This document shows positions 44,761 to 50,370 of a stretch of 64,000 nt of DNA, piece after piece (the stretch's first letter is position 1; each line of letters begins with the position of its first letter). The notes beneath the pieces are model-generated. The model saw only the letters and a list, made by a program, of their open reading frames with translations, did no database searches and had not been told where the DNA came from. The stretch spans positions 1-64,000 of the forward strand of contig JAFQIY010000037.1 of assembly GCA_017415165.1 (NCBI GenBank), in the 5' to 3' direction. Made by a program: the position numbers and the translations under genes. This DNA comes from Oscillospiraceae bacterium. Lineage in GTDB: Bacteria; Bacillota; Clostridia; Oscillospirales; Ruminococcaceae.

Positions 44761-46224
44761 TCAGCTTACTTTGTCATATCTTGTGCTGTAGATTATGTTG
44801 TCCATTACGCTTTCGGGGGAGATTTCGCCGTCCTTTACCATATCGAAAATTGCGGGAGAAAAGCCTGAAACAAGTGCAGCGCCCGTATCGGAAAAGCTGA
44901 CGGGAACGTTTTTCTGACGGCTGTTGACGTTCCAGAAAATCACATCGGGAAGTCTGTAGCCGAAGCGTGCGTACTTGCGCTTCATAAGCTCAAACAGGGT
45001 CTGATTGTTGCCGCCCTCAATGCACCAGTCAAATTCCATATCTGAAATGATGTAGAGCTTGGAGGGAAGCTCGCTTTGGGACACCTTGTTTCTTACTGCG
45101 GCGGAGAGGATAAGCTCAAACACTGCTTCAAGGTTGGTATTTGCAACCTCATTGAAGCGGCTGCAGTAGCTTACCTTTCCTACGATGTCATCGCCCTTTA
45201 TTTCCACAAGCTGAGGACGCTCGGAGAAGGTGATGAAGTGATTTGCAAATGTGCCCTTGTTGTGTTCAGCAAAGTAAATGCCAAGCGAAAGTGCAGCGTC
45301 AATGGGTCTTACATCGCAGCCGCAGGTCATTGAGCCTGAGCCGTCAATAACAGCAATGGCGTTGCAGTTTTCCTCGCCGCTTCCGTAGCTGTCAAGGCTT
45401 CTCCAAGCCGCATCAAGGGACGCTCTGTCAGCATCTGTTGTACAGGCAAAAGCCTGTCTTACGATTTCGTAAGGGAAAAGAGCGGAAGCGTGAAGCTTTT
45501 CCTCGCCGCTGATAACACGGCTTACAAATTCGTTGTAGCGTTTGCCGTCGTTGCGGATGAATGCCTTGCGGTACTTGAACATAGCCTTTGAAGGCTGCTT
45601 CGAGTAGTCAAAGGTGTAGTCATACTCACGGAGACGATTTTCAATGATGTCTATGTAGCTTCTCAGAGAAGCAAGCGTGCGGCGGTAGTCCTTCTCACGC
45701 ATACCAAGCATTCTGCAAAGCTTTTTAGCCATAGCAACGGTTTTGGCGGAGGACGCATTTACTGAGGGAAGCCATTTTGCAAGGAGAGAAACGTTTTCTT
45801 TGTTTGCCATAGCTTCAAGGTCGGCGTCAAGAATACGGCTGATTTCCTTGACGGCTTCATCAGCACAAGGCGTGTCGAGAAGCACGCAGAGGTCATCGTA
45901 TCTGCCGTACTCCGCAACAAGGGGAATGTTTCTTTTTACAGCCTCGGGCGCTACCTTTGCAAGGATTTCCATAGCTGTGCGGAAGAAACGTCTTTCGCCG
46001 AGTCCGCCCCTTACGTCACGGGCAAAAAAGATTATCTTCATTGTCTTTTCGGGGTTTTCGCTGTACGCCTTTATAACAGCGTCCTCTATCTGTTCATTGG
46101 TCTGATTACGCATTGCTCCTGCTGTGAAAAACAGGTCAACGCAGTGTGACATTGATGAACGGTTTGTAAGCGCACCGTTTTCGGTGCACGCAATATTATT
46201 TTCAGCTTTAAGCAGGTTAAGCAT
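44761..46224 (-). CDS. rsr: TROVE/VWA protein, bacterial Ro60 (Rsr-like)
   Basis: A 487-residue Ro60-type protein. The N-terminal TROVE region consists of helical HEAT-like repeats (about 1-275), with MRNQTNEQIEDAVIKAYSENPEKTM near the start in parts and FFARDVRGGLGERRFF, typical of the family. The C-terminal von Willebrand A domain has the metal-ion-dependent adhesion motif DGSGSM near residue 293. Ro60 binds Y RNA and the ends of misfolded RNAs and helps exonucleases or RNA quality control. The start is ATG 46224 with GAAAGGAAG. It follows rtcB, with a noncoding RNA-like segment between them, the arrangement of bacterial RNA-repair loci. Confidence 0.9.
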   Translation of the reverse strand: MLNLLKAENNIACTENGALTNRSSMSHCVDLFFTAGAMRNQTNEQIEDAVIKAYSENPEKTMKIIFFARDVRGGLGERRFFRTAMEILAKVAPEAVKRNIPLVAEYGRYDDLCVLLDTPCADEAVKEISRILDADLEAMANKENVSLLAKWLPSVNASSAKTVAMAKKLCRMLGMREKDYRRTLASLRSYIDIIENRLREYDYTFDYSKQPSKAMFKYRKAFIRNDGKRYNEFVSRVISGEEKLHASALFPYEIVRQAFACTTDADRASLDAAWRSLDSYGSGEENCNAIAVIDGSGSMTCGCDVRPIDAALSLGIYFAEHNKGTFANHFITFSERPQLVEIKGDDIVGKVSYCSRFNEVANTNLEAVFELILSAAVRNKVSQSELPSKLYIISDMEFDWCIEGGNNQTLFELMKRKYARFGYRLPDVIFWNVNSRQKNVPVSFSDTGAALVSGFSPAIFDMVKDGEISPESVMDNIIYSTRYDKVS

Positions 46225-46255
46225 TGTAATCTTCCTTTCTTTCTCAAATAAATAC

Positions 46256-46732
46256 AAGGCGGAGTTTATATGTTACCCAAAAACATCTTCAATTGCTGTA
46301 ACCGCCTTAAAAAATGTGCACGGTGCAATTTAAGTCGGGATTTGAACCCGAGACATCTACGGAATAACCCGTAAATGCGATATGCCTCATCACATAAACA
46401 TTGCTGTTTGCACCATTCTTCTTTTTCGGAACAAGTCGCTCATTCACTGAATTTTTCGATGTTAAAGAGTGTGAAGGATTGCTGTATGCGGCTTTTGCGT
46501 CCGATAGGTTTTCAAGCGTGTTTTCTTTGACATTCTCACGGTCATACGCATTTCAGCGTTCTGAAACAATACAAGATTGCCCTGACTTGTGATATATGAG
46601 AACCTGCAAATTGAATTGCTGTCTCTGAAAACCGTTTTATCCAATCCTCACAGACGTTCCGAAATTTGTTTTTATCACGGCTTTGTATTTTTACGATTGA
46701 CAGTCGTTGATAAATATTGCTGTGAAAGCCGT
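46256..46732 (-). ncRNA. Tandem Y-RNA-like stem-loop array between rtcB and rsr
   Basis: On the strand that carries rtcB and rsr, five stem-loop modules follow one another without overlap. Closing stems: 46725-46732 with 46677-46684 (8 bp); 46626-46633 with 46507-46514 (8 bp); 46488-46494 with 46433-46439 (7, one mismatch); 46408-46414 with 46322-46328 (7 bp); 46302-46308 with 46256-46262 (7 bp). Each has ACAGCAAT 0-4 nt inside the 5' arm (plus-strand ATTGCTGT at 46716, 46615, 46478, 46400 and 46292). The fourth is tRNA-like. The association with a Ro60-like protein points to Y RNAs, which Ro60 binds. Number, processing and expression are inferred. Confidence 0.7.
46322..46414 (-). ncRNA. tRNA-like cloverleaf module, YrlA-type Y RNA candidate
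   Basis: A 93-nt module. Terminal stem GGTGCAA with TTGCACC. Then ACAGCAATGTTT, and a D-arm-like hairpin ATGTGAT-GAGGCAT-ATCGCAT (GG in the loop). After 1 nt, a short anticodon-like hairpin TACGG-GTTATT-CCGTA, a 6-nt variable segment, the T-arm TCGGG-TTCAAAT-CCCGA, then CTTAAA before the closing strand. The T-loop TTCAAAT is canonical. Extra unpaired segments between terminal stem and core, and the absence of a 3' CCA, show it is not an ordinary tRNA. Known bacterial YrlA RNAs contain just such a tRNA mimic joined to a Ro-binding stem. Confidence 0.75.
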
Positions 46733-46745
46733 TGTATATTCCACG

Positions 46746-47975
46746 TCAGCCTTTTACAACGCCGACAGTGAAAAGCGTTTTGATTGGTTCAACAAGGTCA
46801 CGCTGATTAGCCATAACCTGTGTGATATCCTTGTATGCGAAGCGTGCCTCCTCGGCAACGTCCGCCTTGTTGTGCTTTGCAAGGATAACGTTCTTTTCTT
46901 TAAGGTCACACATAACCTGTTCGGTAGAAAAATTATCCAGCGCAGCTGTACGGGAGTAAAGTCTTCCTGCACCGTGAGATGAGGACATAAAGCTTTCGGG
47001 ATTACCCTTGCCCTTTACAATGTAGCTGTATGAACCCATTGCTCCGGGGATAATTCCAAGCTCGCCGTCACCTGCGTGTACTGCACCCTTTCTGTGCACC
47101 CACACGTTTTTGCCGTAGTGATTTTCAAGTGCGGCATAGTTGTGGTGACAGTTTATTTCAGTGGAATATGTTGGCTCTGTGCCTGTGTATTTTACAACAT
47201 AGCGTGTGAAAATCTCCTTGATTTTGCAGAGCATTGCCGCTCTGTTTTCGTAGGCGAAGTCCATAGCCAGCTGCATATAGTTAAGGTAGCGTCTGCCCTC
47301 GTCTGAGTCGGCTGGCAGGAATGGAAGCTTCCATTCTGTCGGCACGGAGGAATACCACTTCTCATTCAGCTTATAGGCAAGCTTGTTGAAGTGCTGTCCA
47401 ACGATGTTGCCGAAATGACGGCTGCCCGAATGAAGCATTATACAGCACATTCCGTCCTCGTCCTGCTGAAGCTCAATGAAGTGATTTCCGCCGCCGAGAG
47501 TACCAATCTGAAAGTAGCCCTCATCAATCTGCGGAAGAAGCTCAGCGTCAGCTTCATACTTTGAAAGCTCAGCCTTTGCCCTGTCAAGCACAGCGGATTC
47601 CTGCGGCTTTTTGTAATGGTTGAAGCCTGTGGGAATGTTGCGGAGGATATCTCCGCATATCGCCTGCACAAGATTTCCGCTGCCTGTTATGGTTTCACGG
47701 AGAACTGAAACGGGGACATCCGTCTGTATGAAAGCCATTCCGCAGCCGATGTCAACCCCTACGGCATTTGGAATTACCACACCGTCGCAGGCGATTACGC
47801 CGCCGATTGGCATACCCTTTCCTGCGTGAGCGTCGGGCATAAGCGCAACCCACTTATGTATAAAGGGGAGGCGTGAAAGGTTTTCAACCTGTTCAATACA
47901 TTTTTGCTCAAGTGCCTCAACAGAGGTGTTCCATATTTTAATCGGCATAGCACCGTCATTGTTTACAACAAACAT
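46746..47975 (-). CDS. rtcB: RNA-splicing ligase RtcB
   Basis: A 409-residue RtcB that joins RNA 3'-phosphate or 2',3'-cyclic phosphate ends to 5'-OH ends using GTP and manganese. Motifs visible: VGVDIGCGM, GTLGGGNHFIE, CHHNYA, HRKGAVHAG and MSSSHGAGR, whose His334 is the residue that becomes guanylylated. I chose ATG 47975, 9 nt after AAGGAG; TTG 47984 lies directly on the ribosome binding site. No archease or RtcA gene is adjacent. It heads the unit rtcB - stem-loop array - rsr. Confidence 0.96.
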   Translation of the reverse strand: MFVVNNDGAMPIKIWNTSVEALEQKCIEQVENLSRLPFIHKWVALMPDAHAGKGMPIGGVIACDGVVIPNAVGVDIGCGMAFIQTDVPVSVLRETITGSGNLVQAICGDILRNIPTGFNHYKKPQESAVLDRAKAELSKYEADAELLPQIDEGYFQIGTLGGGNHFIELQQDEDGMCCIMLHSGSRHFGNIVGQHFNKLAYKLNEKWYSSVPTEWKLPFLPADSDEGRRYLNYMQLAMDFAYENRAAMLCKIKEIFTRYVVKYTGTEPTYSTEINCHHNYAALENHYGKNVWVHRKGAVHAGDGELGIIPGAMGSYSYIVKGKGNPESFMSSSHGAGRLYSRTAALDNFSTEQVMCDLKEKNVILAKHNKADVAEEARFAYKDITQVMANQRDLVEPIKTLFTVGVVKG

Positions 47976-48021
47976 TTCTGACAACTCCTTTTTGATGTTT
48001 CGTGTTTTGCGGTATGTTCAG

Positions 48022-48030: not shown

Positions 48031-48143
48031 CCCTGCAAGGAAAAAATCATTTAAAAAAATCTGCGAACATTTCCAAAGGTATTGCCATTGAAATTTTTTT
48101 CTGCTATTATAATTGTATTGAAAAAAGAAGGGAAGTGAATATC

Positions 48144-49397
48144 GTGGCAGGCTTTTCCGAGCTGATAAAAAGCTTTGACAAGACAAGGGATTACGTCCGT
48201 GATTTCTTTATTTACGGCTGTAAGGTGAGAAATGATTTTCAGGCAAAAAGCAGCCGTACCTATGACGATGAAAAGCGTCGTGTGGAAAGCTGGCTGGGGG
48301 ACTATATACACACCGACAATTCTCAGCGCGGCAAAAAGGTTTGTATATCCGTTGACAGCGGACATATCAGCGAAAATCCGCTTTACAAGGCATATTACTC
48401 AAAAAGCTTTACCGACAACGATATAAAGCTTCATTTCCTTTTGACAGACATTCTTGCTGACGGCGAGAGCCTGACCCTGAAAGAGCTTGTCAACCGTCTT
48501 GCTGACGATTACGGCGAGCTTTTCGATGAGCAGACCGTCCGCAACAAGCTTAAAGAATACGCCGATGAGGGTGTGTTTGTCAAGGAAAAACAGGGCAAAA
48601 CCGATTATTTCAGGCTCTCCGAGGATACCGCGGAAAGCTTTTTTAATGAGTACGCAGGACTGGACAACGCTGTGAAATTTGCGTCCGAGGCAGGAAATTT
48701 CGGCGTTGTGGGCAACAGTCTGCTTAAATCGGCAGGACTGAAAAACGATATCATTCTGAACAAGCACAATTATATTGTACATACCCTTGAGGACGAGGTT
48801 ATGCTTGATATTGTTTCGGCAATTGATGAAAAACGCTTTATAACCTTCGAAAGCTTCGGTAAAAACCGTGAGGGAAAGACGTTTGAATACAGCGGTGTGC
48901 CGTTCAGAATTCTTTCCTCAATGCAGACGGGCAGACGTTATCTTACAATGTACAACTACGAATACCGCCGCTACAATTCGGTGCGTCTTGACAGCATAAA
49001 GTCCGTAAAGCAGGGTGAGATTTGTCCCGATTATGATGAAATGCTTGCCCTGTATCTGAAAAATGAGCAGAAATGCTTCGGTGTGTCATTCGGAAGAAGA
49101 ACCGAGCTTGGGCACGTTGAGCCGATAAAGCTTACGATATTTGCTGACGAAAAAACGGAGGACTACATCATCAACCGTCTTGAACGCGAAAAGCGGTGCG
49201 GCACGGTGGAGCACGTTTCCGAAAACACCTTCGTATTCAGTGCTGACGTTTTTGACCCGAATGAAATTATGCAGTGGGCGAAAAGCTTTATAGGGCGGAT
49301 AATTTCCGTTGAGGGCGGCAGTGAGGAAATCCGTAATAAATTTTACAATGACATAGAAAGAATGAACAGGATGTATTGCGATGAAAAGGAAGATTAA
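48144..49397 (+). CDS. WYL-domain transcriptional regulator
   Basis: A 417-residue protein with an N-terminal helical/winged-helix region (about 75-160; LTLKELVNRLADDYGELFDE and VRNKLKEYADEGVFV resemble a winged helix). The WYL ligand-binding domain is at about 215-300 (ISVFESFG-like and VPFRILSSMQTGRRYLTMYNYEYRRY). A C-terminal WCX-like domain follows. WYL proteins sense nucleic-acid or nucleotide ligands and regulate defence and repair genes. GTG 48144 is chosen, 8 nt after GAAGGGAAG; GTG 48135 is in frame but lies on the binding site. It is divergent from rtcB and overlaps the next WYL gene by 17 nt. Confidence 0.85.
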   Translation: MAGFSELIKSFDKTRDYVRDFFIYGCKVRNDFQAKSSRTYDDEKRRVESWLGDYIHTDNSQRGKKVCISVDSGHISENPLYKAYYSKSFTDNDIKLHFLLTDILADGESLTLKELVNRLADDYGELFDEQTVRNKLKEYADEGVFVKEKQGKTDYFRLSEDTAESFFNEYAGLDNAVKFASEAGNFGVVGNSLLKSAGLKNDIILNKHNYIVHTLEDEVMLDIVSAIDEKRFITFESFGKNREGKTFEYSGVPFRILSSMQTGRRYLTMYNYEYRRYNSVRLDSIKSVKQGEICPDYDEMLALYLKNEQKCFGVSFGRRTELGHVEPIKLTIFADEKTEDYIINRLEREKRCGTVEHVSENTFVFSADVFDPNEIMQWAKSFIGRIISVEGGSEEIRNKFYNDIERMNRMYCDEKED

Positions 49398-50370
49398 TAT
49401 TTTCAGCGAGCTGTACGGTGCATATTACCGCACGGCGGCGAAAATTCTTGCAGAAGATGAAATAACCGAAAGCGGTATCTACAGTATAATTTCAGAGGAG
49501 GCATTTGCCGACTCGGCTTTGTTCATACCGCAGAAGCTTATTCCCAAAAACGGTGTTTCCGATTGGGGACTTATCAAGGCTTGCGACGGAAAAAGCTTTG
49601 CTTCTGTATTGAAGCACAAGCCCCGCAGCGCTGCGACGGAGCTTCATAAACGTTGGCTGAGAGCTCAGCTTGCCGACCCGAAATTCAGGCTTTTTCTTGA
49701 TGATGAGGTTTGTGCAAGGCTGGAGAAACGGCTTGAAGGTGTAAAGCCGCTGTATAAAAGCGAAATTTTCAGAAGTGCAGACGTTTTCAGCGACGGCGAC
49801 CCTTACACAGATGAAAATTACATAAAGAATTTCCGCAGGATTGTGTCTGCGATTACTTCAAGGGAAGTGCTGGACATTGAATTTCTTTCGGGGAAAAATG
49901 AACGGAAGCGTGGGCATTTTCTTCCCTTGCGGCTTGAATATTCACGAAAGAATGACAAGTTCAGGGTGTATTGTGCGGCGTATCGTGACCGTCATTGGAG
50001 CAACGGGCTGATTAATCTGGGCAGGGTTATTTCCGCAGCAGGTACTGAATATAAGTCCGTATATGAAGCGGATATGGAGCAGTATTTTTCACAGCGCAGG
50101 TGCGTTGAGCCTGTTACTGTGGAGGTTACTCCTGAGCGAAACGGCGTGGAGCGTTTTATGATGGAGTTTGCAACCTATGAGAAATACACGGAACGTGATT
50201 TGGAAACAGGCGTGTGCACGGTCAAGCTGTGGTATGACAGGGCTGACGAAACGGAGCTGCTTATCAGACTGCTCAGCTTCGGACCTGTGATTGAGATAAA
50301 ATCACCGCAAAGCTTCCGCAGACTTGCGGCAGAGCGTGTAAAAAGACAGAATGAGCTGCTCAGGCTGTAA
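49381..50370 (+). CDS. WYL-domain protein, second of a pair
   Basis: A 329-residue WYL-type protein. The central domain includes LDIEFLSGKNERKRGHFLPLRLEYSRKNDKFRVYCAAYRD (WYL core, seen in parts). The C-terminal WCX-like part is VEVTPERNGVERFMMEFATYEK. The N-terminal region (1-140) is helical and shows no clear helix-turn-helix, so it may function with the upstream protein. Start ATG 49381, overlapping the preceding gene by 17 nt, implies coupled translation. Together they are probable regulators of the divergent rtcB-rsr unit. Confidence 0.82.
   Translation: MKRKINIFSELYGAYYRTAAKILAEDEITESGIYSIISEEAFADSALFIPQKLIPKNGVSDWGLIKACDGKSFASVLKHKPRSAATELHKRWLRAQLADPKFRLFLDDEVCARLEKRLEGVKPLYKSEIFRSADVFSDGDPYTDENYIKNFRRIVSAITSREVLDIEFLSGKNERKRGHFLPLRLEYSRKNDKFRVYCAAYRDRHWSNGLINLGRVISAAGTEYKSVYEADMEQYFSQRRCVEPVTVEVTPERNGVERFMMEFATYEKYTERDLETGVCTVKLWYDRADETELLIRLLSFGPVIEIKSPQSFRRLAAERVKRQNELLRL

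What the first reader, a model, noticed from the sequence alone, without database searches (positions are those of the whole stretch)
46256..46732. Five tandem stem-loop RNA modules with a shared ACAGCAAT box between rtcB and a Ro60 gene
The 521-nt gap between rtcB and rsr is far longer than a normal intergenic space. The octamer ACAGCAAT occurs five times in the transcribed sense (plus-strand ATTGCTGT at 46292, 46400, 46478, 46615 and 46716). Each copy lies 0-4 nt inside the 5' arm of its own closing stem of 7-8 bp, and the five stem-loops are consecutive and do not overlap. Their inner parts differ: simple hairpins, a multibranched fold, and a tRNA-like cloverleaf. Known: bacterial Ro60 partners bind Y RNAs, usually one or a few genes nearby. 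Inferred: this is an array of Y-RNA-like modules on one transcript, perhaps cut apart, with ACAGCAAT as a shared protein or RNA contact. I know of no described array of this form.
Basis: partly seen in the sequence, partly recalled or inferred. Interest (0 to 1): 0.9.

Follow-up and report, generated by a model that had tools for sequence, protein, structure and literature searches.

The report
Y-RNA-like arrays beside Ro-like gene
A string of small folded RNAs sharing one seven-letter signature sits beside a Ro-like RNA-binding gene in gut bacteria and many phages, and it closely resembles an unexplained RNA class thought to be unique to social amoebae.

Summary
In 80 bacterial loci encoding relatives of the "Ro60" gene, strict modules (A-stem-[0-3 nt]-ACAGCA-variable interior-stem-UG) occur 264 times on the sense strand, in 77 loci, against 3 antisense. 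All eight stem pairs of 87 aligned modules covary. The neighbour is not Ro60/TROVE but DUF2828-DUF7788, a distant Ro-like relative. The same modules lie beside DUF2828 genes of phages of many hosts; a model built from bacterial modules missed 9 of 9 TROVE-match loci. Interiors are hairpins, longer folds, tRNA domains or YrlA-like permuted tRNAs; in some phages the stem replaces a tRNA's anticodon arm, as a circular permutant. Rfam has no such prokaryotic family, but Dictyostelium Class I RNA (RF01414) shares the anatomy: 16 of its 18 best hits (E<=0.0303) in 69 searched records lie within 520 nt of DUF2828. Best reading: tandem Y-RNA-like partners of a Ro-like protein in RNA repair. Binding, processing and function are inferred; whether Chen et al. 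2014 (recalled, not held) covered these RNAs is unchecked.

The parts
46674..46735 (-). Module 1: stem ACGGCTTT/AAAGCCGT+G, box at 46716-46723, simple hairpin interior
   Evidence: R1 37.9 bits (this unit was among those that built R1); conserved in L001 and L002
46527..46638 (-). Module 2: box at 46615-46622, multibranched interior, weak stem ACGGU/ACCGU+G; the least certain module
   Evidence: fold; box reads GCAGCAAT in both relatives; no R1 hit
46430..46497 (-). Module 3: stem AAGCCGC/GCGACTT+G with one C.A mismatch, box at 46478-46485
   Evidence: R1 27.3 bits; kept in L001 and L002
46317..46419 (-). Module 4: stem ATGGTGCAA/TTGCACCGT+G, box at 46400-46407, tRNA-like interior with T-arm CGGGTTCAAATCCCG
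   Evidence: R1 22.0 bits; ARAGORN 46327-46399; fold z -4.3
46252..46312 (-). Module 5, nearest the gene: stem TAAGGCGG/CCGCCTTG, box at 46292-46299
   Evidence: R1 45.6 bits (this unit was among those that built R1)
44761..46224 (-). DUF2828-DUF7788 (Ro-like, vWA-containing) gene, 487 aa
   Evidence: Pfam E 1.7e-34 and 4.5e-44; hhalign to TROVE probability 91.7
46746..47984 (-). rtcB RNA ligase gene, upstream on the same strand
   Evidence: Pfam RtcB E 2e-110
48135..50370 (+). Two divergent genes (420 and 329 aa); the second is WYL/WCX-like below Pfam cut-offs, perhaps a regulator pair

Best explanation
The gap is a tandem array of small noncoding RNAs, each a Y-RNA-like partner of the Ro-like DUF2828 protein encoded next to it. 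Every unit has the same protein-binding end: a 6-8 bp stem of free sequence flanked by A...UG, followed by ACAGCA(A) on the 5' side. On this sits an interchangeable effector end: a plain hairpin, a longer fold, a tRNA domain, or a YrlA-like permuted tRNA. Shown by sequence: the shared anatomy, its conservation, its covariation, its location by DUF2828 genes, and circular permutants in tRNA bodies. Inferred: the DUF2828 protein binds the stem and box; the array is cut into single RNAs; the effector ends recruit or block tRNA-handling enzymes (RtcB, modification or cleavage enzymes) during repair or quality control of damaged RNA, as the Ro60-Y RNA pair tethers PNPase in Deinococcus. In phages, next to tRNA clusters, it would protect or process phage tRNAs. 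Tandem arrays also offer an easy origin for the permutants: the 3' arm, linker and next 5' arm of two neighbours are already a permuted unit.
For: Bacterial gaps (76 of 80 loci; 4 had under 60 nt): ACAGCAA 201 forward against 1 reverse, shuffle mean 5.9. 185 of 206 boxes have a 7-bp stem, against 20.9 (shuffled), 52.4 (swapped) and 46.5 (random anchors in the same gaps) on average. Stems chosen by pairing alone: 172 of 189 have an A-U pair followed by G within the outer five pairs. Covariation on 8 of 8 pairs, 94.0% of cells paired, 0 of 500 shuffles reach the covariation score (rows chosen to have stems). Strict modules 264 sense to 3 antisense in bacteria, 171 to 2 in viral loci. Of 76 bacterial loci with more than 300 nt upstream, 70 have at least one module, 61 at least two, 47 at least three, maximum 7. 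Held-out test: given the loci, R1 hits 7 of 7 DUF2828 genomes of a 398-genome phylum sample and 0 of 9 TROVE-match loci; six of the seven did not build it and are 64-69% identical in DNA to their nearest training locus. Genome-wide with stricter filters it hits 3 of 398, all among those 7. The 182 listed R1 matches (E<=1) in 80 viral loci all lie on the DUF2828 strand. RtcB lies in 35 of the 80 bacterial stretches. PNPase tethering and rsr/Y RNA/rtcBA operons: passages of PMC7790460.
Against: No transcript, binding or processing data. Two of the window's five modules are imperfect. Modules beside the gene lie on its strand, so a cis role is not excluded. DUF2828 is only distantly related to TROVE (18% identity in hhalign; no PDB chain at E<=10) and no structure could be predicted. 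Six of 76 bacterial loci lack strict modules, as do 30 of 98 viral, phage and plasmid loci. The genus scan (R1 in 3 of 21 genomes, those with a gene 87-100% identical) is not independent: units of all three genomes built R1 (L001 and L002 are identical to G003 and G005). There G015 (49% identical DUF2828) had no R1 match at E<=0.1, though two modules with long interiors are found by the strict detector; G013 holds only a truncated gene. One marginal R1 match (G003:C58, E 0.06) is not at the locus.
Confidence: 0.68

Rival explanations
1. Cis-acting control: the modules are binding sites in the leader of the DUF2828 mRNA, so the protein regulates its own synthesis or the rtcB-DUF2828 operon; the interiors are spacers.
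For: 244 of 264 bacterial modules are upstream of the gene on its strand; the 182 viral R1 hits are on its strand.
Against: In some phages modules are downstream of the gene (L201, L196, L208, L198) or far away: in a Lak phage one lies in a tRNA cluster 71 kb from the gene. Spacers would not be tRNA or permuted-tRNA domains. The look-alike Class I RNAs are separate, abundant RNAs (PMC7919456).
Confidence: 0.15
2. Transcript-processing signals: the stem with ACAGCA is a cutting site that separates rtcB, tRNA and DUF2828 transcripts.
For: Modules abut with short linkers (median 17.5 nt of the 168 non-overlapping ones) and interleave with phage tRNAs.
Against: Does not explain variable effector interiors, the anticodon-arm permutants, or the tie to DUF2828 rather than to tRNA clusters in general.
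Confidence: 0.07
3. Ordinary canonical Y RNAs of the YrlA family beside an ordinary Ro60 gene.
For: Same operon type (rtcB) and a YrlA-like permuted tRNA inside some phage modules.
Against: No YrlA hit at the window even at E<=10, nor at gathering score in 33 DUF2828 loci; the protein is not TROVE; YrlA's stem lacks ACAGCA. In a genus-mate, G005, a TROVE gene with a YrlA match and, by eye, repeated UACUUCG units sits on another contig.
Confidence: 0.05

Closest known systems
Dictyostelid Class I RNA (Rfam RF01414)
   Same: Stem joining the ends with compensatory changes, A residues before and UGU after the stem, ACAGCAA just inside the 5' arm, variable interior, 42-65 nt. RF01414 finds phage modules next to DUF2828: 16 of 18 hits at E<=0.0303 within 520 nt of the gene on its strand.
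   Different: Eukaryotic single genes with the DUSE promoter; no match in the 69 bacterial and phage records reaches the gathering score (best 28.1 against 41.5 bits); RF01414 does not find the window's own array. Known binder is the RRM protein Rnp1A. No tRNA domains or arrays are described in the passages read.
Bacterial Y RNA, YrlA (Rfam RF02553), with Rsr/Ro60 (TROVE)
   Same: Protein-binding stem plus effector domain beside a Ro-like gene and rtcB; a permuted tRNA (T-arm, capped acceptor, D-arm) as effector in some modules.
   Different: Different recognition element (CGAA/CUUG in the YrlA consensus, ACAGCA here), different protein family, long tandem arrays, and a reverse-topology form inside tRNA.
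Phage 'Ro-like RNA binding protein' (DUF2828) genes
   Same: Same protein family; annotators of mycobacteriophages already use the name.
   Different: No noncoding RNA other than tRNAs is listed beside these genes in the 14 named phage regions read (one of them, Lak-B6, has no annotation).

Membership tests
Ro60/Rsr (TROVE, PF05731) | TROVE domain match | tested here: not met
   Pfam gives DUF2828 and DUF7788 in 30 of 30 relatives and TROVE is not among the families shown; one of 30 has a weak vWA_Ro60 match, E 0.015
Ro60/Rsr (TROVE, PF05731) | helical-repeat ring plus vWA fold | tested here: inconclusive
   hhalign to TROVE probability 91.7 over 370 columns; VWA_2 matches in 22 of 30 at E<=1; structure prediction switched off
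YrlA (RF02553) | covariance model match at the locus | tested here: not met
   none at the window with E<=10; for comparison, sub-threshold hits (28-40 bits, gathering 69) at 6 of 7 TROVE loci
YrlA (RF02553) | permuted tRNA-like effector domain | tested here: inconclusive
   not in the window (module 4 is tRNA-like in normal order); present in some phage modules (L183, L174, L192, L208). YrlA also rings in 9 of 14 control genomes at E<=0.01, so the count of 21 of 38 records is weak
Class I RNA (RF01414) | terminal stem with compensatory changes | tested here: met
Class I RNA (RF01414) | 11-nt motif beside the 5' arm | tested here: inconclusive
   positions 5-10 invariant by choice of rows, position 11 A in 67 of 87, positions 3-4 not conserved
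Class I RNA (RF01414) | A residues before and UGU after the stem | tested here: met
   stems chosen by pairing alone (189 of 206 boxes): outermost pair A-U 144, next 3' base G 148, base before A 140. In the 87 hand-picked rows: A 58, A 86 / U 85, G 87, U 55; there the choice favoured a 3' G and rows that fitted less well were dropped
Class I RNA (RF01414) | model score above gathering cut-off | tested here: not met
   0 of 69 records
Class I RNA (RF01414) | expression as a separate small RNA | not testable with these tools
   no expression data

The most novel reading that the evidence does not exclude
Dictyostelid Class I RNAs, reported as unique to social amoebae and of unknown mechanism, and the ACAGCA modules of bacteria and phages are one RNA family: the Y-RNA counterpart of DUF2828 Ro-like proteins. 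It forms tandem arrays, carries interchangeable effectors, and includes tRNAs whose anticodon arm is the protein-binding stem in circularly permuted form.
Probability: 0.5. Interest if true: 0.95.

Novelty: new variant of a known kind. Interest (0 to 1): 0.85.

Why it matters
It would give hundreds of phages and many gut bacteria an unrecognised noncoding RNA partner for a gene annotated only as DUF2828, RNA-binding or Ro-like, define a second Ro-like/Y-like pair beside Ro60-YrlA, and offer a directly testable partner class (DUF2828) for Class I RNAs, whose mechanism is still open. It also documents natural circular permutants of an RNA element and of tRNA bodies.

Tried and rejected
Mobile repeat (REP/MITE-like): rejected, because only stem register, box and flanks are shared; 5' arms mostly differ within a locus (identical in 16 of 390 pairs, about the rate between loci) and the bacterial model finds such units only at DUF2828 loci in the genomes scanned, apart from one marginal match.

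Chance motif in AT-rich gaps: rejected by strand asymmetry and by the shuffle, swap and random-anchor controls.

tRNA splicing or introns: phage 'tRNAs' with 40-50 nt inserts looked like intron-bearing genes beside an RNA ligase; the insert is the ACAGCA stem in reverse order (3' arm, loop, 5' arm, box) in place of the anticodon arm. Lone-sequence folds do not show the element cleanly in every case. In viral loci the detector finds 29 such hairpins against 0 antisense, 15 of them between a D-like and a T-like arm, in 13 loci; L124/L126 and L134/L135/L136 appear to be the same sites, so about 12 sites in 10 loci. In bacterial loci it finds 3 against 3 antisense, that is nothing.

Class I RNA link as chance: 28 of 41 hits at E<=0.23 lie within 2.5 kb of DUF2828, all 28 on its strand, 5.5 expected under uniform placement. 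Against: 13 of 41 are elsewhere, RF01414 rings in 5 of 14 control genomes at E<=1, and none is at the window's locus. One search left out the weaker hits (E 0.23 to 1).

Rows dropped: of 109 short units I aligned 87; the 22 left out were near-copies or units whose stem fitted the register less well, picked by hand.

Literature: Chen et al. 2014 on widespread bacterial Y RNAs is recalled, not held; Avesson 2011 and two reviews on bacterial Y RNAs are not held. Searches with DUF2828 (4 papers, all on plants by title), Ro-like RNA binding protein, ACAGCAA with phage/ncRNA terms and Class I RNA with Ro60/Y RNA/TROVE (8 of 24 listed) showed no paper joining these in the listings. PMC7824862 and PMC7765460 (passages) mention Ro60/TROVE-type proteins in jumbo phages. 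That Dictyostelium and other eukaryotes encode DUF2828 is recalled, not tested, apart from plant papers that use the name.

Full report
What is there. The window's minus strand reads rtcB (46746-47984), a 521-nt gap, then a 487-aa gene (44764-46224). The gap holds ACAGCAAT five times in the sense of the genes. Three of the five boxes sit 0-2 nt inside a clean 8-9 bp stem; one stem has a conserved C.A mismatch; one (46615) is loose. Module 4 holds a tRNA-like domain. Two genomes of the same genus with 90% and 87% identical genes keep all five units, with GCAGCAAT in unit 2.

The neighbour. The gene is DUF2828-DUF7788, not TROVE (30 of 30 relatives). A profile comparison with seven TROVE proteins gives probability 91.7 over 370 columns, so Ro-like is fair and Ro60 is not exact. 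A PDB search by sequence found nothing at E<=10.

Conservation. One search fetched 80 bacterial loci (90% down to 36% identity). In the 76 upstream gaps of at least 60 nt ACAGCAA occurs 201 times forward and once reversed, with a shuffle mean of 5.9; 70 of 76 gaps have it, 60 have two or more. Of 206 boxes (201 plus the window's 5), 185 have a 7-bp partner within 200 nt; controls average 20.9 to 52.4. Aligning 87 of the 109 short units (22 dropped by hand as near-copies or as fitting less well) gives a fixed register: A-A-N-G-R-N-N-C-N-N-ACAGCA...G-N-N-Y-C-N-U-G-U, with changes on both sides at 8 of 8 pairs. These rows were chosen for having stems, so the control-based figures are the fairer test: with stems chosen by pairing alone, 172 of 189 show an A-U pair followed by G near the outer end. 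The strict detector finds 264 units in 77 of 80 loci against 3 antisense. Of 76 loci with more than 300 nt upstream, 70 have units, 61 two or more, up to 7, with linkers of median 17.5 nt.

Specificity. Covariance model R1 hits all seven DUF2828 genomes of a 398-genome phylum sample at their loci (E 0.002 or better at the best unit) and none of nine TROVE-match loci, seven of which hold full-length genes. Six of those seven genomes were not used to build it; their loci are 64-69% identical in DNA to the nearest training locus. Genome-wide with stricter filters R1 hits 3 of 398, all within the seven. In the genus it hits 3 of 21, those with a gene 87-100% identical to the window's, but all three contributed units to R1; G015, with a 49% identical gene, is missed by the model and has two units with about 180-nt interiors.

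Phages. Relatives of the protein occur in 682 of 50,697 phage records and 4 of 72,556 plasmids (tblastn). In 80 IMG/VR loci R1 has 182 matches (E<=1), all on the gene's strand. Of 14 named phages read with 6-kb flanks, R1 has matches at E<=1 in 9 (Listeria A511, Mycobacterium Wilder and Wamburgrxpress, Campylobacter CP30A, Escherichia finno, Staphylococcus S-CoN_Ph11, Rhizobium RHph_I1_18, Vibrio MS02, and weakly, E 0.18, Synechococcus B23). By eye Fusobacterium Fnu1 and Lak-B6 (25% identical protein) also have a unit, while Munch, K566 and AsFcp_4 show no clear one beside the gene. The strict detector finds 171 units in 68 of 98 viral, phage and plasmid loci, against 2 antisense.

Effector ends. 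Interiors differ: short hairpins (114 of 264 bacterial, 88 of 171 viral), longer interiors without a T-loop motif (94 and 50), T-loop motif only (43 and 22), and D- and T-like arms in normal order (6 and 6) or permuted order (7 and 5) by a crude pattern. Whole tRNA domains inside closing stems include L040, L048 and L057. The permuted ones (T-arm, capped acceptor, D-arm) match the order of Rfam YrlA, whose own binding stem is different. In a further form the tRNA body is normal but its anticodon arm is replaced by the binding stem in reverse order, 3' arm, loop, 5' arm, ACAGCA. That is a circular permutant of the array unit, and a tandem array contains exactly such a joint between neighbours (inference).

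Class I RNA. Rfam RF01414 models Class I RNA from Dictyostelium. Its consensus has a terminal stem, CUU-ACAGCAA and a 3' UG. Over 69 records it gives 18 hits at E<=0.0303, 16 of them within 520 nt of DUF2828 on its strand; the other two are a Lak-phage unit in a tRNA cluster and one in G616. None reaches the gathering score, and the window's array is not hit. Kjellin et al. 2021 (PMC7919456; abstract, passages and sections 10 and 14 read) describe Class I RNAs as 42-65 nt in D. discoideum, with stem, 11-nt motif, AAG...CUGU ends and compensatory stem changes, and found none outside Dictyostelia; section 14 names amoebae, Archaeplastida, Opisthokonta and Myxococcus xanthus as the genomes searched. 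Shared descent or a shared binding protein would both explain the likeness; chance is unlikely. Whether dictyostelids encode DUF2828 was not tested here.

How it may work. Shown: anatomy, conservation, covariation, co-location with DUF2828 and, in 35 of 80 bacterial stretches, with an RtcB relative (21 upstream at 70% identity or more, 14 at 26-33% downstream). Inferred: the protein binds stem and box; units are separated; effector ends bring tRNA-handling enzymes to the Ro-like protein or act as decoys. PMC7790460 (passages) reports that Deinococcus Rsr is tethered by Y RNA to PNPase, that rsr, Y RNAs and rtcBA share an operon in Salmonella, and suggests YrlA's tRNA-like domain might inhibit an anticodon nuclease. 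I hold the scaffold reading at 0.68, cis control at 0.15.

Novelty. Rfam 15 has no matching prokaryotic family at the window or, at gathering score, in 33 other DUF2828 loci scanned, apart from tRNA and one ROOL. Bacterial Y RNAs with tRNA-like domains are known, and Chen et al. 2014 (recalled, not held) reported them near Ro60 in many bacteria and phages; I could not check whether DUF2828 loci were among them. I therefore rate it a new variant of a known kind, with the Class I link as its boldest part.

Noticed in passing
L213 (G005:C57:31000-39500): A genus-mate's contig with phage-like genes carries a canonical TROVE gene (open frame of 381 aa followed by an overlapping 129-aa frame) with a YrlA match and, by eye, three units with UACUUCG in the gene's sense, so both Ro-like systems occur in one genome.
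   Followed up: partly
L130 557-1184: A ROOL RNA (363 bits) in a viral contig is followed 12 nt later by an ACAGCA module, near tRNA genes and DUF2828.
   Followed up: no
window 46571-46590 (minus strand): A possibly decayed box (CAAGTCAGGGCAAT) where relative L002 has ACAGCAAT, suggesting a lost unit or turnover inside module 2.
   Followed up: partly
window 48135-50370 (+): Divergent gene pair beside rtcB, the second with weak WCX/WYL matches; open frames of about 410 and 330 aa lie divergently upstream of the array in several relatives such as L006, L008 and L015.
   Followed up: partly
L084 (G015), reverse strand: Two units with the same stem and about 180-nt interiors in tandem beside a DUF2828 gene 49% identical to the window's, much longer than usual.
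   Followed up: no
L215 (Lak-B6 126500-129500): An ACAGCA unit inside a tRNA cluster 71 kb from the phage's DUF2828 gene, showing that units are not always beside the gene.
   Followed up: partly
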